64,000 nucleotides of DNA. Origin: Liolophura sinensis (lineage: Eukaryota; Mollusca; Polyplacophora; Chitonida; Chitonidae). How positions within the stretch are numbered: the stretch's first letter is position 1; each line of letters begins with the position of its first letter. The translations under genes and the position numbers were made by a program. Of the stretch, positions 2,893-40,404 are shown one piece after another. The notes under the pieces were generated by a model. The model made no database searches and was not told where the DNA came from. It saw only the letters and a program-made list of their open reading frames with translations. Location: the NCBI RefSeq assembly GCF_032854445.1, contig NC_088301.1, positions 32,286,402 to 32,350,401 on the forward strand, in the 5' to 3' direction.

Positions 2893-2995
2893 ATGTTATC
2901 CAGCGTAGCCTTTTATGTACGCCTTCTTCCGCTGACATCCAGGACAGGAGTCCTAATGACTCGCACTCAACGCTCCCGGTCCCGGCTAACAGCAG
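2893..2995 (+). CDS. BBOX1-like: Exon 1 of dioxygenase copy 1: putative mitochondrial presequence
   Basis: This 103-base exon (34 codons plus one base) starts with ATG at 2893 and ends at a GTAAAC donor. The peptide begins MLSSVAFYVRLLPLTSRT and is rich in Arg, Ser and Thr with no acidic residue, as expected of a mitochondrial targeting peptide. It was chosen because copy 2 has a first exon of 106 bases (35 codons plus one base) with the same phase and a similar composition. Joining it to 7803 across a 4.8-kb intron keeps the frame. It has no direct homology support, so a different first exon in this intron is possible. Confidence 0.5.
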
Positions 2996-8100: not shown

Positions 8101-11100
8101 CCACATGCAGACAAAATTTTTGTGAACAGATATACCAACATTAAAAGCCGGGGTAACTGGCGTGTGTAAACATGAATTAAGTGTACCTATGAGGTTCTTT
8201 AGTCCGCTATTCAAACGTTTGAATACATTTAACTTTCATTTAAAACAGCCAAAAATATAAATGACAGTATTTCATTGAATGGTTTCCAGTTGCAGTCAGC
8301 CGATAAGCCATAACTTCACTTTTTAGTTTTCTGTCGCATTGAAGCAGCTGCACCCTTGGACTGAAGATACGATAATCCTAACACGTTGTAAATTATACAT
8401 CGGCATGGAAACCATGCGTTAGATACGGCCGCTTAGCGATGCCCATTCAGTAACTCTCATCCTAGCCACTGTATAATTAAAGCTATAAACATGTATATGC
8501 AGATTTTTCATGCTTTCATGAAACTTCCGCTAAGGCTCGGTATGGTTGGCTTCTGATTTAGATCCACTCAGTTCAAACTATTTTGGGGATATTGCATAAA
8601 ATTTCAGTTTAATATTATTAAATATTTAATATTGAATTAAATTTTCCGGATTGCAGTGATGTAGGCTTATTTATATAGTTATTTTAGTTTATTTTATAGT
8701 TTTTGAACACTTGGTCTGGTTTTCACAGTAAAATACTATATTCGACTGGATCTATCTAAGTTATTTGGAATCGTGAGGAATCGTCAGGGCAAATATTTTG
8801 CTACCTCAAATGGAAAATGAAAAATATTCACTTGATATAATGCGCATGTTTTTTTTTATTCTCTGTAGGAAACCATCACTCCACCGTCTTTGTCAGAATG
8901 TGATGGAAGCGTGGTAAGCCTTTTCTGGGATTCCGGTTTACATTCCAGGTATAAATCAGTTTCCATTAATCTCTTAATTATATTAATGCTAAAGTTAACC
9001 CGCTTATGACAGTCTTGTGACTTTACACAACAGCTGTGTAAAAACATGTCATTCTCTAGATCGCTTGAGACTGCTCTACAATGCTTCAGCGTTTATAGTA
9101 GCGTACATGTAGTTCTAGTGTTCTAAGATGCAGTCAGATCTTGTATTCTAAGCTGCAGTATTCTTACGTTTTACATTGCACTACGTTTTACGTTGCACTA
9201 GGTTTTACATTGTACTACGTTTTACGTTGCACTACGTTTTACATTGTACTACGTTTTACGTTGCACTACGTTTTACATTCTACTACGTTTACATTGCTCT
9301 ACGTTTTACGTTGCACTACGTTTTACATTGTACTACGTTTTACGTTGCTCTACGTTTTACGTTGCACTACGTTTTACATTGTACTACGTTTTACGTTGCA
9401 CTACGTTTTACATTGTACTACGTTTTACGTTGCACTACGTTTTACATTGTACTACGTTTTACATTGCTCTACGTTTTACGTTGCACTACGTTGTTCTACG
9501 CTAAAATGTTTCTGTTTATCGCTGCTGTTCTTTTGTTGTACGCTACAATGCCTCTGTTCATCGCTGTAGTTCTTGTGCTATATGCCACAATAAGAAAAAA
9601 GTAAATACATTGCTCATTGTGACAAACGAAACGGTGTATTGATAACTTATGGATCTATTAATTTATTTCATTTATTTGTATTGTGCGCCGTATTTCACTT
9701 GTGACATATACTGTCAATATGTTAGTTCTTTTGACTAGATTCCACAGCAGCTGGTTACGTCACAACTGCCACTGTGCTGACTGTAAACAAGAAGGGAGTG
9801 GCCAGAAATGCCTGGACGCCGCCCACTTGCCGGATAGGTTGACCATTTCGGAGGTTGTGCTGAAAGGTATGCTATGTATATCTTGAGTTGAACGTCGTAC
9901 TTAACAGTTTTTCAGTCATTTGACGACGAAAAGTGATTAAGTGCGTGTACATATATATTGTCTTCTTGTGGCAGTCCGACTCCATGCTGCCAGTGATGTA
10001 TCATGCTGACGACACCAGACATGACACACCATCCAGTCATATTATACTGATACTGGGCCAGTCATTCATGTTTGCTGAGTGCCAAGCGATTCAGCAGCAA
10101 GTATGTTTTTTAAAGTCTTTGGTATTACCCGACCCGGGTTTGATCCCGAGGTCTTCCGACTTCGACGCGGACGCTCGAACCTTTAGGCCAGGGTAAAGGT
10201 ATAACCCGTACATGTTTGTTTCTAAAATAAATAGGGTAAACCTCAACTGACATTATGTTAACTGACATTATAGCAACTCACACAAAAGACGCCATCACCA
10301 TGAGCTCTTTAACACATACAGTCTTTGCATTTCAGCTGAATTCTACCTCTAATGTGTGAGTGAAACGTGTGACTTGTTAGTGGCTCTGGTTACTTTTCTC
10401 ACCAGGGGACAAAATTGAGCTCCGATGGCGGGAAGAGCCCAATCACTTTGGTTATCTCCCCTTACAGTTCCTGAAAGACAACAGTTATGACGAGTCCACA
10501 TTAACACGCAAGCAGGTGGATAGGAGGCCTCATGCATACCAAGATGTGAGTAATACTGTCAGGTAGATATATATGATTAGAACGTTTAAAGAATCCTTTA
10601 CACCCTTTGCCAAGGATCCCATTGTTCTTTACGCTGACACTCGTAATTCAAATCACTGTGGAGAACAACAGATTTACATGTTTCCGTTTATCCAAAATTC
10701 GAACTGGAAATTTTTCATGAATTATGAATCCTGGTGTGGATTTTATGCTGTCTTTAAGTGGATGTCGTTTGCTGAAATCGGCTCGGATCATATCTGACAG
10801 CCGTTGTTATATGACCTATATACTTTTTTATTTCTTCATTAGACGCACTTGAGGGGCCTCCGTGGCCGAGGGGGTTAGCTCGCAAGCACGGCGCATTGGC
10901 CCAGGAGCCTCTGCCAATGCGGTCGCTGTGAGTTCAAGGCCAGTTCATGCTGGCTTCCTCACGGCCTGTTCGTGGGAAGGTCTGCCGTTAACCTGTGGAT
11001 GGTCGTTGGTATCCCCCACTCCCCCACCATAGTGCTGGCCGCCGTCGTATATGTGAAATATTCTTGAGCAATCAAATAAATTTATTTATTTATTTATTTA

Positions 11101-14100
11101 TTTGATTGGTGTTTTACGCTGTACTCAAGAATATTTCACTTATACGACGGCGGCCAGCATTATGGTGGGTGGAAACCGGGCAGAGCCCGTAGGAAACCCA
11201 CGACCATCCGCAGGTTCAAATAAATAGATATGCGCACGTGTAGCTGTCAGTGTAGTCTAACGTGCATTGAAGACGTGGGACGTCACATGTGGTAAAGTTA
11301 ATCATGAACTTGGTTTAATCCAAGCACTCTGGTTTCCGCCACCCATAAACCTAACCGCCATGGTATAAGTAAAAAAATCTAAAGTATGGGGTTAAGCAAC
11401 AACTGAATAAATAAATACATCAGATGTATCCTGTCGTTTTGAGCCGGTTTCACAATGGACTCCGATTGTTTACATACATATCTACATCAAGCTCGTTTGT
11501 ACATTTTGTTCACATCTTCAACTCTGTGTGTGTAGTTTTAAATTTACCATATTGTTTTTAAGTCCATTTCCCTGAGCTTTCCGCGGTTGGTGTTGTGGTG
11601 TATAAAAGATAATTGTTTGTTTTAGGAAGGCATGCCTAGGGTGCGTTTCAGCGACGTAAGAGCCTCGACAGATGGACTTTTTAGGTAAGTCTCTAGGCTA
11701 TATATCACGTTGGGGCCTCCGTGGCTCAGTCGGTTAGCGCGCTAGCGCAGCGTAATGACCCAGGAGCCTCTCACCAATGCGGTCGCACCAATGAGTTCAA
11801 GTCCAGCTCATGCTGGCTTCCTCTGCGGCCGTAAGTGGGAAGGTCTGTTAGCAACCTGCGGATGGTCGTGGGTTTCCCCCGGGCTCTGCCCGGTTTCCAC
11901 CCACCATAATGCTGGCCGCCGTCGTATAAGTGAAATATTCTTGAGTACGGCGTAAAACACCAATCAAATAAATAAATAAATATATATCACGTTCGTGATA
12001 GCAGGCGCTTTCCAACAGGAAGGAAACCAACGGAATAACTAGCTAGCTGTGGAAAATGATAAAAACCATTCATGTTAAAAACCGTTACAAAAGCTTATGT
12101 TGTTCTGATACAGTTAAAGATTAGGTTTACAGAAGATTCAAGGAACTACGTTTCAGACTTTAAAGGTGGAGAAAACATAAAAATGATATAAAGTTCAGCT
12201 GAAAGAGTGCAAAAAGTTATTCCTTTATGTGGTTTTCTGTATTTTTTCCGATTTTTCCTGAAGGAGAAAAAGACACTTGAAAATAATTTTTGTATGGTTG
12301 GTATTTGGGACCACCTATTGGTATCTATAGTCTTTGTTTAAAAATGTCATAAATGAGGATGTAACACAGGTTTAATAAATATTTTTGCACTAGAATTTGT
12401 TCTTTTCAGATAACAAATTTATTAAACCTAATTTTAGATCATATTTATATTTTTAATATGTTGATAAATATTATCATAATTTAGGTTAAATGTTTATGTT
12501 TCGTTATAAAAAACAAATTTACATTCAAATAAATTTATTAGACAAGCGTCACATCCTTATTTAGAACATTATTATTCAACAACGATAAATGCCAAAAGTT
12601 GGTCCCAAATACCCACAATACAAAAATATTTTCAAATACCATTTTCTCTTGAAAAAAAAAACATCCAAAAAAATATTAACGATCATATTTGCAAATAAGT
12701 TTTGACACTCTTTCTTTGGCATCATTTTTATGTTTTCTTCTCATTTAACTGTCTCTGTATGATGGGAACAACTTAAGGTAATTTAAATTTAACTGTCTCT
12801 GTATGATAGGGACAGCTTATTTTTTTAACTTCTTGTTTGCGCATATATGGTGGAAATAATTTGGCCAATTTCATTCGACGTCTCACTATATATGGTGTTC
12901 CCCTTAATAAAGTCAAAGGACACCTGCTGTGAACAGTTCAGAATAGAAATCTAACTGAGATCAAATATGACGTGACGTGACCATACACCGATTGTCTAAC
13001 ATTGCACCGATCAGATATGACGTGGCGTGACCATACACTGATTGTCTAACATTGCACCGATCAAATATGACGTGGCGTGACCATACACCGATTGTCTAAC
13101 ATTGCATCGATCAAATATGACGCGACGTGACCATACACCGATTGTCTAACATTGCATCGATCAAATATGACGTGACGTGACCACACACCGATTGCTAACA
13201 TTGCACCGATCAAATATGACGTGACGTGACCATACACCGATTGTCTAACATTGCACCGATCAAATATGACGTGACGTGACCATACACCGATTGTCTAACA
13301 TTGCACCGATCAAATATGACGTGGCGTGACCATACACCGATTGTCTAACATTGCACCGATCAAATATGACGTGACGTGACCATACACCGATTGTCTAACA
13401 TTGCACCGATCAAATATGACCATACACCGATTGTATAACATTGCATCGATCAAATATGACGTGACGTGACCATACACCGATTGTCTAACATTGCACCGAT
13501 CAAATATGACCATACACCGACTGTCTAACATTGCACCGATCAAATATGACCATACACCGATTGTCTAATATTGGACCGATCAAATATGACCATACACCGA
13601 TTGTTTAACATTGCACCGATCAAATATGACGTGGCGTGACCATACACCGACTGTCTAACATTGCACCGATCAAATATGACCATACACCGATTGTCTAACA
13701 TTGCACCGATGAAATATGACCATACACCGATTGTCTAACATTGCACCGATCAAATATGACGTGGCGTGACCATACACCGATTGTCTAACATTGCACCGAT
13801 CAAATATGACCATACACCGATTGTTTAACATTGCACCGATCAAATATGACGTGGCGTGACCATACACCGATTGTCTAACATTGCACCGATCAAATATGAC
13901 GTGGCGTGACCATACACCGATTGTCTAACATTGCACCGATCAAATATGACGTGACGTGACCATACACCGATTGTCTAACATTGCACCGATCAAATATGAC
14001 GTGGCGTGACCATACACCGATTGTCTAACATTGCACCGATCAAATATGACGTGGCGTGACCATACACCGATTGTCTAACATTGCACCGATCAAATATGAC

Positions 14101-17100
14101 GTGGCGTGACCATACACCAATTGGCTAACATTGCACCGATCAAATATGACGTGGCGTGACCATACACCAATTGGCTAACATTGCACCGATCAAATATGAC
14201 GTGGCGTGACCATACACCAATTGGCTAACATTGCACCGATCAAATATGACGTGGCGTGACCATACACCGATTGTCTAACATTGCACCGATCAAATATGAC
14301 GTGGCGTGACCATACACCAATTGGCTAACATTGCACCGATCAAATATGACGTGGCGTGACCATATACCAATTGGCTAACATTGCACCGATCAAATATGAC
14401 GTGGCGTGACCATATACCAATTGGCTAACATTACACTGTACTCAATGAATTCAATCAGTTTCAACTTTAATATCTGTTTAATAACAATCACACTGTCGTC
14501 ACTGCTCTGGTTTTACTCTCTGTGCTGTAGTCTTTAATATTATATCCTCTATTTTTGTTGCATTGTCCAATTTTTCTGAGATTATCGTCGAAACGATTAT
14601 AAAGTGAAACGTTTTTAACTGTATGCGTAGTTTACGACGGTATGTTGTTGTTGCTGCAGTATGATGTCGATGGTGCATGAGTTTGGTATGTGTCTGGTGG
14701 AGGACATGCGCACAGCACGGGGAGGCGCCATTGAGGTGAGTGATACAGATACCCTTAATTAATGTTAGCAGTGAGGCGAATGCGCTGTGAGGAGTATGAT
14801 GACGCTTCATCTGCCTTAGGCTCCCCCCAAAGCTTTTCTTCATTATTTCATGATAACCACTTTCTGGTCAAATGTTTATGCAGGTCTCCTAAATTATGAG
14901 AAGTCTCTTGCTGGCTTAAATAAAGCTTGGCTCTCGCGGCAGCAGATCAGTATGTATACGGGCTTACTTTAGAACCCTATATAACCCTGCCTACCGCCGT
15001 ACAAGTCTAAACAATTTTTGATTAACACAAATAAATAAATCAAATACGTCAAAGACATGCCCGTGTTAAGCTACATCCATTTCGTTGTATTGTGATCCTA
15101 GAAAAGGAGCCTTGTATGAAGCAGTGCTAAGGAAGCGGGTTGTGTCAGTCGTTTAGGCACACGATATGCGGGTACAAACACTTGAACAGGTAATTTGTAC
15201 TAGGTTTCTCTCGCTGTTCATGTTGATAAGCAGTCGAAGAAGCTCCTGTTGCCGCCTATACCGTCTAACGTTCGTTAAAGGCGTGCTATATCACACGTTG
15301 GTAAGTTCGTCAGTAACTTGCCAAAGTTCAGTGGTTTACCCCAAACACTCCGTTTTCCTCACCCATAATATTGATCGCCATCGGGGATTGAAAAATTAAT
15401 GACTATGGCCTTAAACAACAATCAAATAAATTAATAAATAAAAAAAGGTTGTGACATTAGTTTAAAAATAGCATTGATCTTCCATGTAGATCATCAACCC
15501 ATCAACTGGAGTGTTAACTTTCTTCTTCAGCTGGCGGAAAAGATCGCTCCCATTCAACATACAATATACGGAAAGGTGAGTCAGTCTCCCAGGCAGTTTA
15601 TTTGGAAATATCTAGATTTGTAGCTGGCGAGAAGGGTCATACAGCGTTGGCCACGCGCGAAAACAAGGGGATTACAGGTCGGATGGCACCACATCCATTC
15701 TGTCCTCTCGGATCAAGCTCAGCTCGACTTCTAATAAATGTATTAATTTTGACAGAAGGCCTGTTGTCTGTGTGATGCAAGAATGTGTTATCGAAACAAA
15801 ATACTGTCATATTCAACATAAATAATCTGTTAGCCTAATATAATCTTTATGTTGAATTAATAAAATATGTGTGCTGTATGCAATAGTGTAATCTGCTGCA
15901 GTAAAAGAATGCATTATAGCATCACTCAAACAACCGACTTTCTGTTAAATTTAACACATTATTTTTTGAGAGTCCCGTTTTACTTATGGTCCTGTCCGTC
16001 TGTCTGTTTGTCTGTCTGTTTGTCTGTCTGTCATCTTTATGACTGTAACATTTCTGAACCTATTGAAACCAAATTCGTGAACGTGTGCTTTTTTGCAAGG
16101 CACAAGTATATCTTTTGAAGATTTGCTGGGATTTACATCAAAAGCTGCATAAAATATATTGAGGAGGGATTGAGGAGTGTTGCAGTTGTACTATTTCTGC
16201 CTCTGTTATTTTTATTTGCGTCTCGTTTGACCTCAAAAGTCAGTGCACCTTGATAGACACGTCTAACACCTACCCCCACCCCCCCCCCCCCCCACCCCGA
16301 CCTACTAACCACACACTGCAGCAAAATATCTCGAATTATCCCCAGGTTAATACATAGCGCTTTAAATACTTGACTTAATCACGGGTATCTCATGGTTACA
16401 TGTTTAAACTGAAATATTACCATCAGTCATCTGAACAAAATATAGACTAGTCAACACATGTGATTTTGTTCTCCATGTCACACAGAGGTTTGACGTTGTC
16501 AGCACCCCAGACCCTATCAACATCGCCTACAGCTCTGTTCGTCTTGACCTGCATATGGATTTAGCTTATTACGAGTCACCACCGGGGCTGCAGGTTTTCA
16601 ACTGTGTCAGGTGTGTTTTCTGAACTCTCCCGATTTGCATAGCTATGGATCAGCCTAATAAATAACTAGTCAGCGTTTGGTTTGGATGGTACGTTAATTT
16701 GACGCATGCAGCCTCTTCACTCCACGACTGAATTTGAGCAAAAATAAAATTAAAAAAAGAAGGGTGGCCCGATTGTTAGAGCGTCCACCTCGAAGTTGGG
16801 AGACCCCGAGATAAAACCCAAGCCCCAAAGAATGTCAGTATAATGTGATGAGGTGTCATGTCTGGTGTCTTCGGCATGATACTTCAGTGGGGGCATGGAC
16901 TCGCTCTGCCACAAGAAGACACATTATATGTGCACACACCTAAAATTGTTAAGTACGACATAAGACCTCAAAGAACACATATGTACATTTCATGGCTGGT
17001 ACACGAACCTGTGTTGAAACGTATGGCTAAATAAAAAAAAACATGGATACTATGTTTTGCAAAAACAACAGGGATGATCTTAATTTCGTACCTTGACCAG

Positions 17101-20100
17101 GTTTGACAATTTGGTCGTGGGAGGTGAAAGCATTTTCCTGGATGTGTTTCCGCTAATGGAGGACTTCCGGTCTACCTATCCCCAAGAGTTTGAGGATTTG
17201 GCCAGAATTCCGGCTACTTTTCAAAAAATACACTTCAACAGGTAAGAAATTCTCCGTTATCTTTTTATATATCACACCATATTGCAAATAAATCGGGCAC
17301 CTGACAGTCTCACTAAAATCAGATGTAGCAGCCTGAAGTCAGATCTGAAGAAATGCGTATTCCTGCCTGATCAAATCTTAGTAGCAAACACAACTGGTGT
17401 TCGATACACACATATTTGAAAAGGTCCGACTTATTTCAAGATTTTCAAAATATGGATGTAAGAATTTGATTGGGCCAATACCAGACGGACTGAACGTAGT
17501 TGTTTCGTTAGATATAGTCAGTGACAGGTTTGTATTGTGAGAGACTACCGGAGCTGACTTCACTGATCGAATAATATCACTCCCCACGTGACTACCGTGT
17601 AAGGTAACTACAACATAGTTGAGTTCCTCAGTACATAAGGCTTGCATCACACAGAATATTCTTTAAATATCTTCTTCTTACATTGCACCAGCTACGATAA
17701 AACTATACCTTTAAATTGATAAATTCGATCATTTTTTTTTTTCTGAAAATGTGCAGTGTATATCAAACAACATTGAATATAATGATCTTCGATGACATTT
17801 TCGTCTCCGGTTCGCAGGGTCCGTCCAGTATATATGACCTACCAAAGACCACATGTTGCGATAAATGCCGACAAAGAGGTGAGGGAATGCTGATGTATTT
17901 TGCTTAAGATATACATGAAAAAGTACTACGAAGAGTAGGACTTTAAGGAACAAGAAGAAAGACATGCCAGAAAAATGAGAGAAAAATATTTTTGAGGCTT
18001 ATTTAATATTTCTTAATAACCTCTCTGTTTTACGCATATTTTCCGACGGAAATGAATATTCGGAAATGACGTCATCGATGAACGCGGGACCAGCTTAGAG
18101 CCCCAATTCAACAAATTTGTTTTTACAGCTATCATAATTGCCGTAGCCATAGCAGGCTACTTAATTTCCGGCCTGACCGCTGGGGGCCTTTATAGGAAAA
18201 CTGTAGTTTAAAGCCAGTTTTACGCCCCACGAAGAAAGCTGATAAATTTTTTGTAGTTTTATATGTTAGGACAAATCATGTACTACGTATTATGAAACAA
18301 AAATCAAACGTTTCGTATATCCTTTAAGTGTATTATGTGCTCGCGTTTGGCCGTTTGCGCAGTCCAAAGTTCGTTGAAGAATATGAATATGTACGTCATA
18401 GCTAGTTAAAGTTTGTAAGTAACTTGCTAGTGGTGGGTGGTTTAAATCCAGCACTCCTTTACCCTCAAAATTCATCACGGAGTTACAGAATTACCCTGCA
18501 CATCTTTATGCATTTAGAATATATGCCTTCCATTTGGGAATTACAGATTACTGGTGTGTTTTGGTCTCCCGCATTCGAAGGGCCTTTGTCCGTCCCAGAA
18601 GTAAGTCACGTGTTTTCATGTTGAAGCTCCAGTTATTGGTATACTAGCTCTGTAAACTGTATAAATATGTGCTTTCAAAATTATAAATTGTTAAAACAAT
18701 GTTTGTATTTGTTATTCCCCTACAAGTATCGGAGGGGACCATACGCTTACACATCATATGTCACTCCGTAAAGATTCAGCTCTCCGGACTTTTTTTTAGA
18801 GTGAGTGAATGAGTGAGTGCTTGGGGTTTAACGTCGTACTCCTTTTTTTTAGAAGGTATGATCGTATTGGATTGAAACTTGGTGCATAACTTCTCCGTGG
18901 TGATTTACACATCAAGTTTGAGTTTCGGTCAGTTTTCGACAGAATTATAGTGCTTTTTGTCCTAAGTTTTCTTTTATTCTGAATTGGAACCTGGTACAAA
19001 CCTTTATCAAAACATATTTCAGACCAAGTTCCAGCCTTTGGCAGTTTTACATTGCTGTGGTTAAGTCATACTATTTACATTGACGTAACTGTTATTCTGA
19101 TGACTCAAACCGTTAGGGAACACTGTCGCAGTACTTCCAGAATGCTTGTTAATCCCTTTAGAAGTACAGATGTTGTCAGAGTTCCCTTTGTTTTCACTTT
19201 TCACATGTATTGTACATTTGATTGTTTGGTTATTGTCGTTTATTCACCCTACTTTGCAAAATGTTTATCAATGTTCAAGCGTACGTCGAGAAAGAGAACG
19301 GTGTACAATCCAGAAAGAGGATTTGTTTCCATCGTGCGCGTTTTGGATTCAAGAATTCAGAATACACCTTTTCTCTTAGTACATATAAGGTATACGTACA
19401 AAACTGCACTCTTTTCTAACTGATATATGAAGCTATCAAGGAAATTGTGTACAACCGAGGGGGTGAGGTTACTCACCGCTAATGGTCGAGAGTTCAAGTC
19501 TAATTCAGGCCAGTATTGTCAGTGATGATTTGCATTGTGAAAAAACGAGTCATTAACCATTTGATATGTTCCCTGAATACGATGATAATGTCAGTTTTAT
19601 ATAAATAATAACGCAGTAAAATCTAAAATACAATTGCATTGTTTTGTAATAATATTGACTGATCGCTTAGTTTAATGTAAAGTAAAGCTTATTCTTTTGT
19701 AATGATATTGATACTGATCGTTGTTGTTGTATGTGACAGAAAGATGTTGAGCTATACTATCGAGCGTATCACCTATTGGCAAAGGCCATCAGCGCATCAC
19801 CCTTACGGGTAAGTCTCATTGTATATCGATCCGTCCCCATCGTGGTTCTTCTCTCCTAAACACATCGTCATTTAATCGAGTGAAACGCTTATAGCTACAT
19901 GTACGGTCACGGGCTTGAAGCAATTTAACAGGCAGAAACAATCTATCCAAATAAATAGTTGATGAATATCAATAAATACAGTTTGATTCAAAACAAATTA
20001 TAGATTTCTTAATTATGGACAGCAGAGGCGAAACATAGGTTGTATGAAGTCTGATAGCACAAGTACTTTCCACTTTTGTATGAGCGGAGGAAAACGTCCT

Positions 20101-22023
20101 GATGCCGGAAACCGCTAGATGCTGGAGTGATGTCAAAATTCTTACAGCGTTCGATTTCCTCATCATATTGGTCCGCTTCGCATTTAAGTGCTTTCATTAT
20201 ATACATTGCAATGTGATTCTCACGTTTGAAATCTTTTAATTTAAACCAATCCTTTGAGAAGCGGGTAAGTATTTGAATTCGATAACGATTGCTGTATTTT
20301 AAGTGCGGGTAGTAAGACTTTAGCATAAGCATCGTATCCAGACAGTGAACGTAGTGCATGATATAAAAGCGCGGCGATGTTCATAGTGTCTGGCTGGATT
20401 TCATAATGTGCTATATAGATAGGCCTACAGTGTACGTGTGTGTTGACAGCCTGACCAAAATCAGGTCTAGCAACAGATTCATATACAGACTTGTCTCAGG
20501 CTTAAGCTCTAATCAAAACAGTTCAACTTATCCCCTCCATGCACTATTTAGTTCTCGCCACGAAATGGCTAAAATATTGGCGTTTAAGCAATACTCAACC
20601 ATTCATTCGTTCCGTGTTTTGGAAAATAGAGTCGGTTCTTTCAACATTTGTACACTGATGCTGATCGGTATTCGGTTTCCAACCAAAAAGGGTCAACGGA
20701 CGAGTAAGTTCTGTACTACAGATACAGTAATCTGCAATTCAGAATACGGAGAACATCGCCTTATGTAGGCCTAAGCGGCAAGTCGGAGAAATTGGTCACA
20801 TAGTAATTTGTTGTTTGACAAGAAGGTTAATAGTCCTTTTAGTTCTCGATAATGATTTGTCTAGGGCTTTGTCAGGTGATTTGTTAGGTGTTTTTTTTCG
20901 TTAGTTTGTCAGGTTGCTTGTCAGGTGGTTTGTCTGATAGTTTGTGAGGTGGGTTTGTCAGTAGGTTTGTGAGGTGGATTGTCTGGTGTGTTTTTTCGTT
21001 GTTGTTTGTCAAGTGAATCTTTAGCAGGTTTCTCTGGTGGTTTGTCTGTCAAGTGTGCTGGTTACCCCAGGCTGTTTCTCTCCACATCCTGACATGTAAG
21101 GGGAGTTAGACAAAACTGATCCAAGGACATTCATCTGTTTAAGCTGTGATGAAACATTTTAATAATGTCCCTTAACGAACCCTTATTAACGAATAAAGAT
21201 CCAAAGAGGTAAAACTTATCATCTAACTTCATCGTGTTTCCTTCCAACAGAGAACTATCCGTCTAAATCCGGGGAAGCTATTGTCTTCAACAACAGACGA
21301 ATACTACACGGGCGTAATGAGTTCTCACTCAATGGCGGCCAAAGACATTTTGAGGTAAACTATAGATTAGATACTAGAATTAAGGTTTAGATGCCACATT
21401 GTTTAATGGAGATTGCAACGCGCTCGTGTATATCAGTCGTTGTGTCGGTATCTTGATCAGCACCTGCAACAGTGTATATTTTGGTAAATACATACAGTTA
21501 CAGCAGTAGTATTTCTGACAATATAAGCAACAGTATCTCTCACGATATCAGTAACTGTGTCTCTGACAGTATATATCGGAGATTATGTCTCTGATAATAT
21601 CAGCTACAGTATTTCTGACAACAGATATCAGCAATAGTATCTCTGACAGTATGAGCAACAGTATCTCTGATAATATTAGCTACAGTATTTATGAGAACAT
21701 CAACATCACAGTATCTGTGAATATTATTAACAGTAACTATAAACATTAACATATCGTATTTCTGGCGATATTAATATCTCTGACAATATCAGCTTCATTG
21801 TCTGGTTATCAGTATTAACATCTCTGATAATGTCAGACACAGAACCTGGGACATTATGTGCTCCAGTATTTACCAGTATCTTTAAGCTTTGAACTATGTG
21901 TGATTTAATTTTCAGGGGTGTTATATGAACATTGACGAGTTCCTGAGTCACTTCCGGTTTCTGTCACATAGCAAAGGTAGACTAACCTCTGTGAAACGGG
22001 TCGGCAATCAGTGTTGGTTCTGA
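2893..22023 (+). CDS. BBOX1-like: Gamma-butyrobetaine dioxygenase-like protein, copy 1 (15 exons, possible frameshift in exon 14)
   Basis: Fe(II)/2-oxoglutarate oxygenase of the BBOX1/TMLHE family, which hydroxylates gamma-butyrobetaine or trimethyllysine in carnitine synthesis. Exons read: 2893-2995, 7803-7885, 8869-8948, 9739-9866, 10406-10545, 11626-11684, 14660-14735, 15531-15575, 16486-16610, 17101-17241, 17818-17878, 18547-18600, 19740-19808, 21253-21354 (or 21251) and 21916-22023. All borders have GT-AG, and phases agree with the paralogue at 25005-39864. The model gives 457 residues. Residues 1-34 are a basic leader. The N-terminal zinc-binding domain shows WLRHNCHCADC (about 94-104). 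The catalytic fold has the iron ligands H261 and D263 (LHMD) and H407 (LHGR), and a likely 2-oxoglutarate-binding Arg near 419 (QRHFE). The C-terminus is VGNQCWF. Exon 14 has lost one base relative to copy 2, so it may be a pseudogene in the making or may use a shifted acceptor. Exons 1 and 2 are less certain than exons 3-15. Substrate is not decided by sequence alone. Confidence 0.88.
3361..3870. repeat. Inverted repeat pair, arms about 55 bp
   Basis: The segment starting at 3361 (cagaagttcattatctagaa) is matched, with few changes, by the reverse complement of about 3811-3870. The arms enclose roughly 400 bases. It sits in intron 1 of dioxygenase copy 1 and may be a non-autonomous DNA element. 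No target-site duplication was identified. Confidence 0.55.
4019..4545. repeat. Degenerate 21-bp pyrimidine-rich minisatellite
   Basis: About 25 diverged units resembling ttctcacacatcccattcca. Because the unit length is a multiple of three and stop-free, frames of about 180-190 codons stay open on both strands. Those frames are by-products of the repeat, not genes. A few more units occur at 4828-4880 beyond an inserted SINE. It lies in intron 1 of dioxygenase copy 1. Confidence 0.85.
4540..4815 (+). mobile_element. SINE family B inserted in the 21-bp repeat
   Basis: The head reads tcggtgatctaacggttaga then gcgtcctcctcgaattcggg, a diverged tRNA-like A-box region. It is followed by 'ctggtgtcagtataatatga' and ends in 'gtgaagtacgacgtaaaagt'. 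It splits the pyrimidine minisatellite, whose units resume at about 4828. Confidence 0.7.
5052..5116. repeat. (TA)n microsatellite
   Basis: About 32 uninterrupted TA units immediately precede the A-rich 3' end of the SINE on the minus strand at 5150-5406. Confidence 0.95.
5150..5406 (-). mobile_element. SINE family A, full length
   Basis: Read on the minus strand it begins ggggcctccgtgggtcagtc, an A-box-like tRNA head with 'ggttagcgcgctagcgcagc'. A B-box-like region, a middle domain 'ggtcgtgggtttcccccggg' and a 3' end 'cggcgtaaaacaccaatcaa' follow. This is the commonest repeat in the window. Confidence 0.85.
5640..5797 (+). mobile_element. SINE family A, head-truncated
   Basis: It starts within the element at 'ctccggccgtaagtga' and ends 'ggcgtaaaacaccaatcaaa'. 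Sequence differences from the copy at 11712 suggest an older insertion. Confidence 0.75.
6406..7414. mobile_element. About 1-kb foldback element with long repetitive inverted arms
   Basis: The left end (ggacgttgttacagccagtg at 6406) is the near reverse complement of the right end (actggttgtaacagacgttc at about 7394-7413). Both arms, about 200 bp each, are built from short units such as 'accagtaatgatataaaa', read in opposite orientation in the two arms. The roughly 600-bp centre has no coding capacity. The architecture fits a foldback or MITE-like DNA element in intron 1 of dioxygenase copy 1. Confidence 0.65.
7803..7885 (+). CDS. BBOX1-like: Exon 2 of dioxygenase copy 1
   Basis: This 83-base exon lies between a 'gtgttttcag' acceptor and a 'gtaaga' donor. 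It is read in phase 1 to 0 as KRPNELLREMCFLTPANPKV and onwards. The peptide is linker-like with no recognised domain. Copy 2 has a 68-base exon of identical phase at this place, also unconserved, which supports it as a fast-evolving segment between the presequence and the zinc domain. Confidence 0.6.
8869..8948 (+). CDS. BBOX1-like: Exon 3 of dioxygenase copy 1 (start of N-terminal domain)
   Basis: This 80-base exon reads through GSVVSLFWDSGLHS and splices to RFHSSWLRHNC in exon 4. That reproduces the strand-then-WLR pattern of the BBOX/TMLHE N-terminal domain, and the paralogue has GGILNVKWQEGPDA at the same place. Confidence 0.85.
9166..9500. repeat. 17-bp minisatellite
   Basis: About 19 tandem units alternate between two forms, acgttttacgttgcact and acgttttacattgtact. 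The regular frame-neutral composition leaves long open frames of 86-142 codons in all three plus frames. These are artefacts. The array sits in intron 3 of dioxygenase copy 1, about 240 bases before exon 4, and is followed by a two-copy repeat of about 46 bp to about 9590. Confidence 0.92.
9739..9866 (+). CDS. BBOX1-like: Exon 4 of dioxygenase copy 1 (zinc-binding Cys cluster)
   Basis: It encodes FHSSWLRHNCHCADC. The C-x-C-x2-C cluster matches the zinc ligands of the BBOX1 N-terminal domain. It also reads ..LDAAHLPDRLTISEVVLKG, as in the family. The donor is gtatgc. Confidence 0.93.
9885..10195 (-). mobile_element. SINE family B, near full length
   Basis: On the minus strand it begins with the tRNA-like head (ggcctaaaggttcgagcgtc, then an A/B-box region with 'cgggatcaaacccgggtcgg'). 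It runs through the family B body to 'gtcgtcaaatgactgaaaaa' and 'gttaagtacgacgttcaact'. It inserted into intron 4 only about 20 bases after exon 4. Confidence 0.8.
10406..10545 (+). CDS. BBOX1-like: Exon 5 of dioxygenase copy 1
   Basis: This 140-base exon, the same length as in copy 2, encodes DKIELRWREEPNHFGYLPLQ and completes the N-terminal zinc domain. The His in EEPNH aligns by eye with the fourth zinc ligand of BBOX1. Confidence 0.92.
10853..11216. mobile_element. Two SINE family A copies, tail to tail
   Basis: A plus-strand copy (10853 to about 11080, head 'ggggcctccgtggccgaggg') is joined through a shared (AAAT/TTTA)n tail to a minus-strand copy (about 11090-11216, head missing). Together they form an imperfect inverted repeat of over 100 bases per arm. 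They are in intron 5 of dioxygenase copy 1. Confidence 0.85.
11626..11684 (+). CDS. BBOX1-like: Exon 6 of dioxygenase copy 1
   Basis: This 59-base exon, the same length as copy 2, encodes EGMPRVRFSDVRASTDGLF. It is bounded by a tttag acceptor and a gtaagt donor. Confidence 0.9.
11712..11982 (+). mobile_element. SINE family A, best preserved full-length copy
   Basis: The tRNA-like head 'ggcctccgtggctcagtcgg' and 'ttagcgcgctagcgcagcgt' holds an A box. The B-box-like motif is 'gagttcaagtcc'. The 3' end is 'cggcgtaaaacaccaatcaa' followed by (ATAA)n. It lies 27 bases after exon 6. It is a useful reference for the other copies in this window. Confidence 0.88.
12168..12747. mobile_element. About 580-bp near-complete palindrome (foldback element)
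   Basis: Left-arm motifs such as 'gaaaacataaaaatgat', 'gtatttgggacca' and 'ggatgt' reappear in reverse complement and reverse order in the right half, ending 'atcatttttatgttttc'. The centre of symmetry is near 12455, so arms of about 280 bp with some divergence cover the whole element. No coding capacity is seen. It lies in intron 6 of dioxygenase copy 1. Confidence 0.75.
12960..14433. repeat. Intronic satellite, about 30 units of 50 or 40 bp
   Basis: The 50-bp unit consists of catacaccga, ttgtctaaca, ttgcaccgat, caaatatgac and gtggcgtgac (or gtgacgtgac). A shorter 40-bp unit lacks only the last ten bases and is mixed with 50-bp units between about 13400 and 13860. The distal units (about 14110-14430) carry the variant 'caccaattggctaac'. 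The array occupies half of intron 6 of dioxygenase copy 1. Confidence 0.96.
14660..14735 (+). CDS. BBOX1-like: Exon 7 of dioxygenase copy 1
   Basis: This 76-base exon encodes MMSMVHEFGMCLVEDMRTAR and aligns with the 'LKKVGIVRL' strand that opens the catalytic domain in BBOX1. It follows the 50-bp satellite by only about 225 bases. Confidence 0.9.
15531..15575 (+). CDS. BBOX1-like: Exon 8 of dioxygenase copy 1
   Basis: This 45-base micro-exon encodes LAEKIAPIQHTIYGK, matching the 'AERISLIRETIYGR' helix of TMLHE. Copy 2 has the same length and phase. Confidence 0.92.
16272..16298 (-). repeat. Poly-C tract (G-rich on minus strand)
   Basis: A run of nearly pure C with single A interruptions. 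The minus strand carries several runs of four or more G and could form a G-quadruplex. It is in intron 8 of dioxygenase copy 1. Confidence 0.8.
16486..16610 (+). CDS. BBOX1-like: Exon 9 of dioxygenase copy 1 (iron ligands HxD)
   Basis: It encodes DPINIAYSSVRLDLHMDLAY then ESPPGLQVFNC. LHMD holds the His-x-Asp iron-binding pair of the double-stranded beta helix. The following PPG-x-Q-x-x-x-C matches BBOX1 'PPGVQLLHC'. Confidence 0.95.
16760..17005 (+). mobile_element. SINE family B
   Basis: The head 'ggtggcccgattgttagagc' and 'gtccacctcgaagttgggag' is followed by a family B body ending 'tgttaagtacgacataagac'. The orientation is the same as the gene. It lies in intron 9. Confidence 0.78.
17101..17241 (+). 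CDS. BBOX1-like: Exon 10 of dioxygenase copy 1
   Basis: This 141-base exon encodes the Gly-Gly turn and helix (VVGGESIFLDVFPLMEDFRS) and PQEFEDLARIPATFQKIHF, corresponding to 'TGGDSEIVDGF...' in BBOX1. Confidence 0.95.
17818..17878 (+). CDS. BBOX1-like: Exon 11 of dioxygenase copy 1
   Basis: This 61-base exon encodes VRPVYMTYQRPHVAINADKE, conserved as ENPVYMTFQRPHILLNHRDE in copy 2. Confidence 0.95.
18547..18600 (+). CDS. BBOX1-like: Exon 12 of dioxygenase copy 1
   Basis: This 54-base exon encodes ITGVFWSPAFEGPLSVPE. Copy 2 has IAAVFWTQQNEGPLAVAE at the same place. Confidence 0.93.
19740..19808 (+). CDS. BBOX1-like: Exon 13 of dioxygenase copy 1
   Basis: This 69-base exon encodes KDVELYYRAYHLLAKAISAS then PLR, the helix before the last beta strands. 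Confidence 0.93.
20830..21075 (+). repeat. Degenerate repeat of 'ggtttgtcaggtgg'
   Basis: Irregular tandem units built on tttgtcaggtgg occupy part of intron 13 of dioxygenase copy 1. No coding signal is seen. Confidence 0.6.
21253..21354 (+). CDS. BBOX1-like: Exon 14 of dioxygenase copy 1 (third iron ligand; 1-base deletion)
   Basis: The exon carries IVFNNRRILHGRNEFSL, with the His of LHGR as third iron ligand, and ends QRHFE with the probable 2-oxoglutarate Arg. From the expected acceptor (exon start 21251) it is 104 bases, against 105 in copy 2. That frame starts RTIRLNPG, like the family, but shifts at the G run 21280-21284 and loses LHGR. Using the AG at 21251-21252 as acceptor (exon start 21253) restores the frame at the cost of the first eight residues. 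Either that site is used, the gene is broken, or one G is missing from the assembly. Confidence 0.8.
21490..21830 (+). repeat. Degenerate repeat of 'cagtatctctgacaatatca'
   Basis: Diverged units of roughly 35-40 bases fill most of intron 14 of dioxygenase copy 1. Confidence 0.6.
21916..22023 (+). CDS. BBOX1-like: Exon 15 of dioxygenase copy 1 (C-terminus and stop)
   Basis: It encodes GCYMNIDEFLSHFRFLSHSK and ends VGNQCWF before TGA. Copy 2 ends with the same VGNQCWF. Confidence 0.95.
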   Translation, partial: GCYMNIDEFLSHFRFLSHSKGRLTSVKRVGNQCWF

Positions 22024-25004: not shown

Positions 25005-25110
25005 ATGTTCTTCAGAAGGGCACTCGCTCAGATTCAACGGCATCATCCACTTTCTGCACGACTTCCCTGTACCACCAGACCACCGCGTTCCACAGTGGAA
25101 CTTCTCAAGG
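25005..25110 (+). CDS. BBOX1-like: Exon 1 of dioxygenase copy 2: putative mitochondrial presequence
   Basis: The ATG at 25005 opens a peptide beginning MFFRRALAQIQRHHPLSARL. It is Arg-rich and free of acidic residues for over 25 positions, and ends after 35 codons plus one base at a gtagga donor. The phase-1 end fits exon 2 exactly (split Asp codon). Longer open frames over the same bases (plus 24847-25173, minus 24753-24980) do not fit the phase and were not used. Confidence 0.65.
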
Positions 25111-28100
25111 GTAGGAACATCAGTGTTTTCTTTAGACTATATGGTATTTGTCATAAGGCAAATTTCAAATTAATCCATCGGATTTGAGACTTTCCACTGT
25201 TTCATCACTTATGACTCAGAAAAGGTGTACCATATTGATCAAACGTTTACACAAACACTACTTGCAATTTATTGAATATGTTTATGTATAACTTATGTGT
25301 AAAAAAATATGTTCTGAACATTTCGAACACAGTCAACGGACTCCGGTATAGGGTGAATGAATTATCTAGATCAACATCTTCAAGAATGTATAGGACTTTT
25401 AAAGGTACCTTCTTGTTTTTTATATGATCATGTTATTGTTTTCTTTGTGGGATTTTCTTTGTTATAGCAGATACCTCGTATAACACACCACTCACTTTAA
25501 CCCAAGCAGTCTCCCTTTCCTCTCTTACTCAAAACTCCGTAAGTATCACATTTGATGTCTTTGCTTTTATAGGCGGCCTATACGAAGCAGAGATTTTAGT
25601 AGTTTTCTTTTTTGTCACTCGGCCAGTTTTCCGTAAGGGAAAGTTAGGTAAGGAGAAGACAAAGTCATCTACATGTATTCCTGTGTATTGAATTGCGCTT
25701 ACGAACCATATTAATATATAGGAGAGTTTAGAGATTGAACTTTTTTGTCGCTAAAGATGAAAAATGTCCTGTTGCATCATGTGACTTGTCAAACATATTT
25801 GGCAACTTTGGTTGACATTAATTTACCAAGAATCTGTATCGCCGTGTTCCAGAGACACACAGGACAGAGCTTTCCGTCGGAAACTTCGTAAACTCACAAA
25901 CGTCCAGTTCCTCATCCTTCTCCGTTTCCGTCTACTCTGAATCATATAATGAGAAACTTTTAGCAAACGCTATGTAATCAAAATTTGCTGTCTATCATTT
26001 CTGACAGGTCACATGGTAATTTTTCACCGTCAATGACAAAAGAATTCGAGACCCAAACTCTCATATTAATTGGCTTCCTTAGCCGTTGGAAGTTTCGCTC
26101 TGCAGAGGTCAGACCCTTGGATAACGACGTCGTGCGTTCAAATCCAGCTCGCATCGGTTTGGCTGAGCACCCGTTGCTGCAAAATAAGCTGCTAGCTGTA
26201 TAGAAATTCATTTCCCAGCAGAAAAGAGACGGGTTCTTGCTCGCTGTGGCAGTGCTTTAGCAGCCATAAGCACTAACGGGGGCTTCACAGCTTTACAAAA
26301 TTTGAGTGTACTTGCAGTGTGAGGGTTTTGAGGAGTAGAGATCTGTCTTACTGGTACCCTGGTCAGCCTTAAACATAGCAGTGTGGAACCGTTCCTGAAG
26401 TCGAACACAAAATAATACTACGGCTTGACCTTTAGGGGTTTGTCAGCTGCGCATGTTTCTCACGTATTGGTATGACGTTGTTGTAGCTTGAGGCAGAGAC
26501 TGGAGCAAGTATCGGGGTCTCCAAAGATGGCGGCATATTGAACGTCAAATGGCAAGAAGGGCCAGACGCCAGGTATTTTCAATGTTCACTATTCTCTACG
26601 ATAAATCTAGGACAGATTTTTGTTTTTGGCGTCATCAACAACTCATGACATGACGGAAGCCATGTAACCCTTCAAAGTCATTGTAAGTACGAAAAAGGCA
26701 TCTCTAAATGACGAGTGACAGTCGAAATGGCCCTAGGCTAAATGTTTTGGCACAGTCATTTTCTGATTTGGGATCCAAGTCATTATTTGAAACATGAAAC
26801 TGCGAAATATTTAACCTACATGTATCTGTTTGGCTGAAACAAGCGGTTTGTACAGCGTCTACAGTTTGACCCCTGTGCTGTTTTAATCTGTAGTGTGAAT
26901 GTCTCGTCTCATCCTACCGTTTTAATTTCTGTGTATGGTGTAAGTGTATGCCTACATTTTTACTCTACTCTATCCTTATCTGGGAGCATGACTTATGTCT
27001 ACAATACTATAAAAGATGTACAGCAAAGATAGTAAAACCAGAACAGCGACGACAGTGTGACAGAAAGCAAATAGCCAGACTTAACCAGTAAAATACGACC
27101 TCTTATCAATTTTCTCAGCTGCGCGTTTATTTTCAGTAGAAGCAGTCTCATCCTACCATTTCCACAGAATAGGCATTTTCAGACTGGCTTAATATTTATT
27201 TCATCAATGCTAAGCTCATATTTTTAATAATGTAACGACGGACATATTACGGATTTACTGAGTACCTGAAAAATCGTCTGGCTCCTGCGCCATCCGCAGC
27301 CACAACAGCGAGAACCGGGTTCAAACCTATGACTAACACTTAATGGCAAACACGCTGGGGCGAAAACAACATATTGCTTTAGTTCTTCAGGTGCCCACAA
27401 CTGTAACTTATCCTACTATGTCGAAAATAGACTGTGTTCGTAGAACATGAAGATATACAATGTGTGCATTTTCTAAATGATAAGTTTGTTTGTAAATAGT
27501 CACCTGTACATTACTGTTCGGATAAGTTTTCCCATGTGGTTTTACTTATCTGTGTTTTGATAAGATAGCACACTTCTATCAGTGTACTGAACCCAATGGC
27601 TCAAAAATATTAGCTGACAACGTCACTTTAGCCGCCATGTCTTAGGTCCTCGCTGGATCAGTCGACTTTTATTTTTGGCCATCTGTGGTTCATTTCACTT
27701 GCTCCACTTCAAAAAGCAATAACAGCGCTTTGACACTTTCATCTGAATTGAATAATAATAATAAACTAGATCCTCAATTTAAAGAGAAGAATGTAATCGA
27801 CACAGAAATGACACTCCGAATAATGATCTGGATACTTAAATTAAAAATTCTCAAAAGAATCTAATCCAAACAGCAAAGACATTCGGGTGATGATCGCCTT
27901 ATGCCAAGAGCCGTTCAGACTTTCAGTCAGTTTCAAGAAATGTTTAGTTCTTAGTGGCGTAGCCCATGTACCAAAACGTTCTCAATTGGGTGAAAATGTA
28001 CGTGTCTGGGTGAAAAAGGTTTCTTGTTTCGGTGAAGAGGTTTACCTGGGTGAAAAGGGTTTCTTGTTTCGGTGAAGAGGTTTACCTGGGTGAAAAGGGT

Positions 28101-31100
28101 TTCTTGTTTCGGTAAAGAGGTTTACCTGGGTGAAAAGGGTTTCTTGTTTCGGTGAAGAGGTTTACCTGGGTGAAAAGGGTTTCTTGTTTCGGTGAAGAGG
28201 TTTACCTGGGTGAAAAGGGTTTCTTGTTTCGGTGAAGAGGTTTACCTGGGTGAAAAGGTTCTTATCTGGAGGAAAACGTTCTTACTAAGTGAAAAGGTTT
28301 ACCTGGGTGAAAAGGTTCTCACCAGGTTGGAAATAGTTAACATTCGACGAGCTATAACAGGACTTATTCTCCTTTCTGAAGACATGGAATAAAGATGGCG
28401 GAAATGTCATCCAAAGCACACCTTACAGACACGTCTGGAACTCAGTATTTATCAGTTCAACTCTCGTTTTCTAGTTTACTCTACTTCCACGAACTGTGTT
28501 TCTACCCAAGTGAAAACAGTTAATACCTCACTTGAGTTTTTACCCAAGCGAGAACTGTATCCCCCCCCCCCCTCCGACCCCAAAATGAAAACATTTGTGA
28601 AAACTGTTTCCACTCAGGTAAAAAGAAATTATTTACCCAGGTGCTAAGCAAAGAAACTACCTTCTACATTGTTCGTGCAGGTTCCACGGTGTATGGTTAC
28701 GTCATAACTGTCACTGTGACCAATGCCGAGCCCCGGCGGGACAGAGGAAGAAAAACGTCTTGGATTATCCAGAGACGGCAACAATTTCAGACCTACATCT
28801 CCATGGTATCGTAATTTATTGATTGATTTATTTTATTGATTTATTTATTCATTTATTTGTTCATTCTTTTACTCAGTTATTATTTTTTATTCATTGATTC
28901 ATTCATCCATTCATTTATTTATGTAATGATAGCGGTCCAGATTGTTGGCGGAGCTGTACCGTGTCCAGAGTAAATCACCGCCATTCACAAAATACCTGAC
29001 AATCCTCCTAACTTAAAGCCACATACGATTCCACTGCCTCACTGATCAGATGCTGATTGCGTGTGGCGATAAGGTTGTAAACAGTTGAGTCACTGAGTGG
29101 TTGATTTACTAGGACAAACGTAAGAGAGGCCGCTTACACAAAGCGACTGTAGGCTAAGTTGATTGTAACTATCTCGGCAACACATGTTAAAAATATATGT
29201 TGCCATGGTAGTTACCGTCAACTTAGCCTACAATCGCTTTGTGCAATCGGCCCCAGGCCTTTACAGTTAAGGCTGTTAGCTCAGTATTTGTATAATACAC
29301 AATGTTATTCGCCAACAGCAGGAATTATTCCCCAGCATCAGCAAACATACATAGCCAATATGTACGGTATCTTCACGACTTTGTCCAACACTGACTCAGT
29401 GTAAATTTTAAAGCGCTGGAACTGAACGCTGGGTTTCCTCCCACAACAATGCTGGCCGTCTCGTGTAAGTGATATATTCTTGAGTAAGGCGTAAAACATC
29501 AATCAAATAAATAAATAAATACTAAATGTTTCTGACATGTATGTTTAAATGCTAAATGACATATTTCAAGTTCTATGGAACTTGCATAGATGCATAGAAA
29601 TTGTCAAACTGGAGGCCAAAAAGGCGAAAATGGCAACACGTGAAAGCCGACACGCAAAAAATACCCATGTTTAAAGATAGTAATAACTATATTCTACAAT
29701 GGAGTGGTTTACCTTAAACCAAAATGCATAGGACTATTTTCCCAACTTTGTACTTTTGGTGGGGGGGGGGGGGGGGGGGTGGTATTTAAATACCACCATA
29801 TAAAAGTAATAGCTATGCCTGAATCGAAAATATTTCTGCATAAAACAAGGACGTCATTCGTAATCCTAAATAACAATAAACGGCATCACATTCGAGCCTA
29901 TTTCTTGGAACATGTGTGAGACTAGCCATTGTATCAGTGGGCTATTATCGATTTGCCCGAACTTTTTATAAATGGAAACACGAAACAGCAGATTCAAGCT
30001 ATCTTAGCAATTGTTTTAGTTATATGACAAGGAGTGAATAGGTGCGTGTGGATATACCGTTTCTCCTTATGGTAGAGCGAGTCCATAACACCAAAGTGCT
30101 GCCGCAACTAAAATATCATGCCGAAGACACCAGGCATGACACCTCACCCAGTGACATTATACTGACACCGGGCCAACTAGTCCTGTTTCCTCGCTCTGAC
30201 CTCTCAGTGCCGAGCGCTAAACGAAGCAGCAACAAGTATCATTTTTAACGGAAGATTGGAACATGGCGTCCTTTATACACAAGACTAAAGTGAGAGTTTC
30301 ACTTTAATGCCACGTCAACACCAGATTAACTTTCTTTTCTCATTTGATCTAGATTAGTTGTTAAAGCGGGTTTTATGTCAACTATAAATTCTAGGTAGTT
30401 TGACCCTGGCTTTAAGTCTTCCATTTCCCCCCTATTGCAGACGACTATGTTGCGCTGTCTTGGTATGAAGAAAAGGGTCACGTGACTCGTGTGCCACTGC
30501 AGTTTCTACGTCAGCATTGCTACTCTAAGGAGGTATTGGAGAAGCGAGATATGGATTCCAGACCAAAAACCTATTCACAGGTGCTATATTAAAAATGCAA
30601 TTTCATTGAGCGTTTCAATTCAGGGCAAAATCTGTGTTCGGCTCATTTGTTTATGGATCTTTGGGTGCCTAAATTTTAACAAGCTGAATATCTGGATTCA
30701 GGCTGCAGTCAGGATTTTTTGTTGTTAGTACCCGTACAGTAAAAGTGACACAAACATAGCATCTTATTTGCTCTTATTTTCAGGAGGGTATCCCCCAGAT
30801 ATCCCTGAAGGATGTTCAGAATTCCCAAGAAGGTTTACTCAGGTAAAAGGTTCTATCATTATTTATTTATTAATTAAATTTATTAGATTGCTGTAGTCAA
30901 TAATGTTCAAACACCATGTATCCGCCTGGTTTAAAGTCTTTAAGCTCAATTAGTTTGCAGTCGTAGCCCTTTAGCCGATTTTAGTCAGTGTATACCTTGT
31001 GAAATCCTCGACACCCAAACACTGTATGATTCATCAATCAAATATTTAAAGGCATTTGCAATAATTCTTTTCAAGAAAGGGAAATTTTAAAAATAGGTCA

Positions 31101-39956: not shown

Positions 39957-39998
39957 GTTTATTCACCACACGTAAATATATGCATAATTACACATCTC

Positions 39999-40404
39999 GT
40001 AAATGGGGGGAATAAAGTCTGAGGGACTTGTTCTATTCCTGACTCATTATTATCAAATAATAATAATACATGCTTGGTGAGGAGCGATAATTATTGAACA
40101 ATTGTATTAACAAAAAACAAATTTACTTGGGAAAAAATTAACATAGAAATGTAACACTACAAAAACCTAAGTTAACTATACAATAGTGTGAATAATATTT
40201 TGTAAATGGGGGGAATAAAGTCTGAGGGACTTGTTCTATTCCTGACTCATTATTATCAAATAATAATAATACATGCTTGGTGAGGAGCGATAATTATTGA
40301 ACAATTGTATTAACAAAAAACAAATTTACTTGGGAAAAAATTAACATAGAAATGTAACACTACAAAAACCTAAGTTAACTATACAATAGTGTGAATAATA
40401 TTTT
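39999..40404. repeat. Two identical 203-bp tandem copies in the LINE 3' region
   Basis: The segment 39999-40201, starting gtaaatggggggaataaagt, is repeated at 40202-40404 with no difference I could see. It lies between ORF2 and the tail of the LINE. Confidence 0.93.

What the first reader, a model, noticed from the sequence alone, without database searches (positions are those of the whole stretch)
21241..21354. One-base loss in exon 14 of dioxygenase copy 1, possibly rescued by a splice acceptor two bases downstream
Exon 14 is 105 bases in copy 2 and 104 in copy 1 from the homologous acceptor. In copy 1 the family-like start RTIRLNPG runs out of frame at a G run, which would delete the LHGR iron-ligand His. 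The acceptor reads cagag: using the second AG (exon start 21253) removes two more bases, restores the frame and keeps LHGR and QRHFE but loses the conserved NPGD turn. So this is a pseudogene at an early stage, a compensated gene with an altered active-site loop, or an assembly error in GGGG.
Basis: partly seen in the sequence, partly recalled or inferred. Interest (0 to 1): 0.7.

Follow-up and report, generated by a model that had tools for sequence, protein, structure and literature searches.

The report
Young frameshift in a duplicated enzyme
One of two neighbouring copies of an animal carnitine-type oxygenase gene has lost a single base near its active-site region, which most likely silences that copy (or is a sequencing slip); the nearby spare splice site looks like a coincidence and not a repair, so the finding is ordinary.

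Summary
The acceptor reads cag|AG, and a start at 21253 would reopen the frame through LHGR and QRHFE. Both copies are TauD/GBBH-type oxygenases; no other stop was found in 416 codons of copy 1.

The rescue is not supported. The 21253 site (GAG) scores -3.1 on an acceptor matrix, below the 28 modelled acceptors (-0.9 to 12.9); 21251 scores 7.0. G at -3 occurs in 0 of 28. A latent frame-restoring site exists at 15 of 27 introns and the same +2 AG at 3 of 27, this exon included. The peptide read from 21251 is equalled by 1 of 1000 shuffles against a family profile; the 21253 peptide by 523 of 1000.

Best reading: an uncompensated, very recent null allele or incipient pseudogene; its premature stop in the last modelled exon removes the second iron histidine and the 2OG arginine. 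A base-call error is the main rival and cannot be excluded without reads. Interest is low.

The parts
2893..2995 (+). copy 1 exon 1, candidate: MLSSVAFYVRLLPLTSRTGVLMTRTQRSRSRLTA, basic, like a mitochondrial presequence; phase-1 donor
   Evidence: 3 candidates listed in the stretch searched; two tie at 9.4 and share this donor, the other starting at an inner ATG; 6 R/K, 0 D/E; prediction only
7803..18600 (+). copy 1 exons 2-12: 7803-7885, 8869-8948, 9739-9866, 10406-10545, 11626-11684, 14660-14735, 15531-15575, 16486-16610, 17101-17241, 17818-17878, 18547-18600; all open with GT/AG borders
19740..19808 (+). copy 1 exon 13 (KDVELYYRAYHLLAKAISASPLR); donor CGG|gtaagt, with a weak GT four bases further on
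21251..21354 (+). copy 1 exon 14, 104 bases, one short of copy 2
21251..21252 (+). second AG of the cag|AG acceptor (would start the exon at 21253)
21271..21274 (+). GGGG, the run where the reading frame is lost
21304..21315 (+). codons for LHGR (second iron-ligand His of the family), out of frame when spliced at 21251
21916..22023 (+). copy 1 exon 15, ends RVGNQCWF-stop in the family frame
21926..21928 (+). premature TGA reached when exon 14 starts at 21251 (last modelled exon)
25005..39864 (+). copy 2, 15 exons, intact 458-aa reading frame
37814..37918 (+). copy 2 exon 14, 105 bases, KCVKLEPGDAIVFNNRRVLHGREEFTLNGGRRHLE

Best explanation
Copy 1 is a TauD/GBBH-type Fe(II)/2-oxoglutarate oxygenase gene that was kept under protein-level selection until very recently. 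In this sequence it carries an uncompensated one-base loss in exon 14. Splicing at the strong CAG acceptor (21251) gives a frame that keeps RTIRLNPG, goes wrong at the G run and stops at TGA 21926-21928 in the last modelled exon (shown from sequence, given that splice). The protein would lack the second iron-ligand histidine and the 2-oxoglutarate arginine and so be inactive (inferred from the BBOX1 alignment). The stop is in the last modelled exon, so decay of the message by the junction rule is not expected (inferred; exon 15 as last exon is a model). The second AG is simply part of the AGA codon that begins the exon. Read as biology, this is a young null allele, possibly still segregating, or the very start of pseudogene decay, with copy 2 intact beside it.
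For: Acceptor matrix: 21251 scores 7.0 and 21253 scores -3.1, against -0.9 to 12.9 for the 28 modelled acceptors scored one at a time; base -3 is C in 22, T in 6, G in 0. [quoted passage not shown] Census: latent frame-restoring site at 15 of 27 introns, same +2 AG at 3 of 27, this exon counted in both. Family profile: RTIRLNPG is equalled by 1 of 1000 shuffles of its own bases, NYPSKSG by 523 of 1000. BLOSUM62 sums against copy 2, BBOX1 and TmpA: 23, 25, 17 for RTIRLNPG; 0, 6, 7 for NYPSKSG. The turn is conserved in the 76 aligned relatives: L 76, P 75, G 73. No stop in 416 codons; 22 of 28 residues after the G run match copy 2 (my count), with differences 6, 1, 20 at codon positions 1, 2, 3. 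If decay had been neutral since the loss, no further lesion means under about 1.2-1.7% substitutions per site (indel rates and mutation weights assumed).
Against: No reads, RNA or second individual could be examined, so a base-call error is not excluded and splice use is not measured. The splice matrix is built from only 28 acceptors of these two gene models. The lack of other lesions is equally expected if the gene is intact (error) or compensated. The protein spliced at 21253 still passes Pfam TauD (94.2 bits, cut-off 27) and loses only about 12 bits to the read-through form on the TmpA model (230.7 against 243), so it could fold. The family profile is made of bacterial relatives 64-93% identical to TmpA, distant from this animal gene.
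Confidence: 0.6

Rival explanations
1. Base-call or consensus error: the genome really has the full-length run and copy 1 is an intact gene.
For: The single change is in a homopolymer and the rest of the model is open, which is what an error in an intact gene looks like.
Against: The run lengths in the window fall off smoothly and long runs are kept: G runs of 4, 5, 6, 7 number 59, 17, 5, 1 and C runs 68, 19, 5, 1, with C runs of 12, 15, 15 and a G run of 19. I computed no expectation for these counts, so this is a mild argument. A four-base run is short for such an error. The sequencing technology is not known to me.
Confidence: 0.25
2. Compensation by the second AG: splicing at 21253 gives a 102-base exon and a full-length protein with the RTIRLNPG strand and turn replaced by NYPSKSG.
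For: The frame is exactly restored and LHGR, QRHFE and the terminal exon return. Profile score 139.9 against 119.3 for the truncated form; Pfam TauD 94.2 bits. Splicing at a tandem NAGNAG acceptor is reported to remove a stop codon in human CFTR E831X (PMC2951375, abstract and outline seen), so splice bypass is possible in principle.
Against: GAG acceptor 2 bases after a CAG, scoring below every modelled acceptor; alternative AGs at 2 bases are described as rare (PMC1449888, passages). The peptide is at chance for the family, 523 of 1000 shuffles, and scores below a masked turn, 139.9 against 144.0. A +2 AG is not special here: 3 of 27 introns.
Confidence: 0.07
3. Compensation by the GT four bases inside the exon 13 intron (donor at 19812), which also restores the frame (ASPLRVKNYPSKSGEAIVF).
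For: The frame is open to the normal stop, and the profile score, 144.1, is slightly above that of the 21253 form. Shifts of 4 bases are the most frequent among minor donors in a human catalogue (PMC8055015, passages).
Against: Donor score -4.9 against 10.0 for the normal site. Such a GT is part of many donors: a frame-restoring donor was found at 13 of 27 introns, and a table in PMC2423196 (passage) gives the GYNNGY pattern in 47% plus 5% of 113,356 constitutive exons.
Confidence: 0.02
4. Slippage on the G run (polymerase or ribosome) gives some full-length protein with the normal sequence.
For: A one-base backward slip on GGGG would re-pair fully and lead into GAA GCT ATT GTC (read), giving the family-like protein, which scores 153.2 on the profile.
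Against: Any loss inside a homopolymer has this property; four G is short, and no stimulating structure was sought. Not tested.
Confidence: 0.03

Closest known systems
Disabled tandem duplicates (young null alleles and incipient pseudogenes; kind recalled, no call)
   Same: One disabling lesion, otherwise open exons, and an intact paralog next door.
   Different: No test of segregation or expression was possible.
NAGNAG tandem acceptors, including the CFTR E831X bypass (PMC2951375, abstract)
   Same: Two AGs close together at one acceptor, with the downstream one removing a coding problem on paper.
   Different: Spacing is 2 and not 3 bases, the second site is GAG, and no transcript was available.
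Gamma-butyrobetaine dioxygenase BBOX1 (PDB 3ms5, 4bg1) and TmpA (6npb)
   Same: GBBH-like N domain plus TauD domain; copy 2 residues 68-442 align with TmpA and 75-438 with BBOX1, with HxD and HxR motifs in register.
   Different: Copy 2 falls below the equivalog cut-offs of BBOX, TMLD and TmpA, so the substrate is open; a basic N-terminal exon suggests mitochondria (inference).

Membership tests
TauD/TfdA-type Fe(II)/2OG oxygenase (PF02668) with GBBH-like N domain (PF06155) | Pfam scores above the curated cut-offs | tested here: met
   Copy 2: 118.9 (cut-off 27) and 49.8 (22.8). Copy 1 exons 2-13: 65.6 and 42.5
Active TauD/TfdA-type Fe(II)/2OG oxygenase (copy 1) | Second metal His and 2OG Arg in the reading frame | tested here: not met
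   Copy 2 has LHGR and RRHLE; copy 1 as spliced at 21251 loses LHGR and QRHFE. Met only if spliced at 21253 or 19812
Gamma-butyrobetaine dioxygenase (TIGR02409) | Equivalog cut-off 414.75 bits | tested here: not met
   Copy 2: 263.4 bits
Trimethyllysine dioxygenase (TIGR02410) | Equivalog cut-off 268.3 bits | tested here: not met
   Copy 2: 196.9 bits
TmpA (NF049936) | Equivalog cut-off 400 bits | tested here: not met
   Copy 2: 270.6 bits
Pseudogene or null allele | At least one disabling lesion in a homologous coding frame | tested here: met
   One-base loss and premature TGA 21926-21928 in the sequence as given
Pseudogene | Further decay (extra stops, frameshifts, lost splice sites) | tested here: not met
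   0 in-frame stops in 416 codons; the modelled introns keep GT/AG
Tandem alternative acceptor | Both sites of usable strength | tested here: not met
   7.0 against -3.1 on a small matrix
Tandem alternative acceptor | Transcripts that use both AGs | not testable with these tools
   No RNA data available to me; no genome held

The most novel reading that the evidence does not exclude
Copy 1 lives on through a switch to the downstream GAG acceptor, so that a one-base loss was answered by a two-base splice shift and the oxygenase now carries a wholly new seven-residue strand and turn ahead of its iron-ligand histidine.
Probability: 0.05. Interest if true: 0.45.

Novelty: new member of a known kind. 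Interest (0 to 1): 0.15.

Why it matters
As it stands it is a caution: a frame-restoring splice site can be found on paper at 15 of the 27 introns modelled here, so such a site alone is not evidence of rescue. If rescue were shown by RNA, it would be a neat case of a splice shift cancelling a frameshift next to an active site.

Tried and rejected
Other nearby splice sites for exon 14: within 12 bases the only frame-restoring acceptor is the +2 AG and the only frame-restoring donor of exon 13 is the +4 GT. Skipping exon 14 keeps the frame but removes both LHGR and QRHFE and gives the lowest profile score of the seven forms, 114.9. A third copy in the window: 27 hits of the copy 2 protein, of which 26 lie in the two models and 1, at E 0.20 on the other strand, does not. 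A further exon after exon 15 at about 23013 was considered by eye and dropped, because both copies end in RVGNQCWF-stop. Closer relatives: the first genome-contig scan and one viral-contig scan confirmed none; the second genome-contig scan confirmed 442 stretches and kept the best 80, of which 75 passed my length filter of 330-600 aa (5 dropped), and TmpA was added, 76 in all. Papers on this gene in molluscs or gastropods: two listings, 4 and 7 papers, none with a title or abstract start on this question; this is no claim that nothing is in print. The listing on BBOX1 residues led; the listing on tandem acceptors; one search found none of its words. Listings on compensated frameshifts, homopolymer errors and mollusc null alleles were not followed up. 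Structure prediction was not tried, because a spliced protein is not one contiguous reading of the window. A call for tRNAs found none.
Full report
What is there. The window looks eukaryotic, with no genome held, and carries interspersed repeats of a type that I associate with molluscs (recalled, no call). Two tandem plus-strand copies of one gene were modelled: copy 2 with 15 exons (25005-39864, 458 aa, no internal stop) and copy 1 with exons 2-15 (7803-22023), plus a candidate exon 1 at 2893-2995. Pfam places both in GBBH-like_N plus TauD. The PDB sequences found are TmpA, human BBOX1 and DfmD, but copy 2 misses the equivalog cut-offs of BBOX, trimethyllysine dioxygenase and TmpA, so the substrate is not known.

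The observation. Exon 14 is 104 bases in copy 1 and 105 in copy 2. Read from 21251, copy 1 gives RTIRLNPG, which lines up with KCVKLEPG of copy 2, then leaves the frame at GGGG 21271-21274 and stops at TGA 21926-21928 in exon 15. In the printed alignment LHGR falls on His347 and RHLE on Arg360 of BBOX1 chain 4bg1 (my count); the paper passages seen place Asp204 and His347 at the metal and Arg360 at the 2OG carboxylate (PMC12067446). The acceptor does read cag|AG, and 21253 does restore the frame.

Is the second AG a rescue? Three tests say no. First, strength: with a matrix built from the other 27 modelled acceptors, 21251 scores 7.0 and 21253 scores -3.1; the 28 acceptors, each scored without itself, run from -0.9 to 12.9. 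The published model seen in passages (PMC1449888) says that G at -3 is strongly disfavoured and that alternative AGs at 2 bases are rare. Second, a census: if one base were lost in the exon after each of the 27 modelled introns, 15 would have a frame-restoring AG or GT within 12 bases, 4 by acceptor and 13 by donor, and 3 have the very same +2 AG; exon 14 of copy 1 is itself in these counts. Third, the peptides: against a profile of 76 relatives, RTIRLNPG is equalled by 1 of 1000 shuffles of its own bases, NYPSKSG by 523 of 1000. So selection shaped the 21251 frame; the 21253 frame bears no trace of it. On the other side, the 21253 protein would still pass Pfam TauD at 94.2 bits and outscores the truncated form on the profile, 139.9 against 119.3, so the rescue is unlikely on splicing grounds and not because the protein is impossible.

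How old is the loss? In the 28 codons after the run, copies 1 and 2 differ at 6, 1 and 20 sites of codon positions 1, 2 and 3; in the 253 codons of the nine equal-length exons (e5-e13) the figures are 98, 73 and 165 (exons 2, 3, 4, 14 and 15 were left out of that count for unequal length). This is the mark of purifying selection over most of the time since duplication. With no further lesion seen (0 stops in 416 codons, 13 introns with GT/AG), neutral decay beyond about 1.2-1.7% substitutions per site is unlikely, under assumed indel rates of 0.08-0.15 per substitution. That is in the range of within-species diversity in many marine invertebrates (recalled), so a segregating null allele is plausible.

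Error or real? Counts of G and C runs fall off smoothly from 4 to 7 and long runs are kept, which speaks mildly against systematic collapse; no expectation was computed. Reads are needed.

Verdict. The anatomy was read correctly, apart from a ten-base slip in the coordinates of the G run. The most likely account is an uncompensated, very recent loss in copy 1, with base-call error as the main rival. The splice rescue is most likely a coincidence of an exon that begins with an AGA codon.

Noticed in passing
12828-14556 (copy 1 intron between exons 6 and 7): Long array of a 50-base repeat with some 40-base units; 21 registered 300-base windows at 61-100% identity.
   Followed up: no
39994-40399: Two head-to-tail copies of a 203-base unit, 99% identical, just after copy 2.
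   Followed up: no
41145-43039, minus strand: Pieces of a non-LTR type element: one RVT_1 match above its cut-off (64.9 bits, 41145-41576) and an RVT_1 and an endonuclease match below theirs.
   Followed up: partly
51753-53147, minus strand: 464-codon open stretch, serine-rich by eye, with no Pfam match at E 0.01; may be a large exon.
   Followed up: partly
21997-22020 and 39838-39861: Both copies end in the identical RVGNQCWF after a variable linker, a tail that lies beyond the end of the BBOX1 and TmpA alignments.
   Followed up: no
329-432, 5149-5304, 11084-11252, 11830-11986, 49235-49326, 51406-51500, 55426-55594: Dispersed copies of one SINE-like element (GATTGGTGTTTTACGCCGTACTCAAGAATATTTCACTTATACGACGG...), apparently in both orientations.
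   Followed up: no
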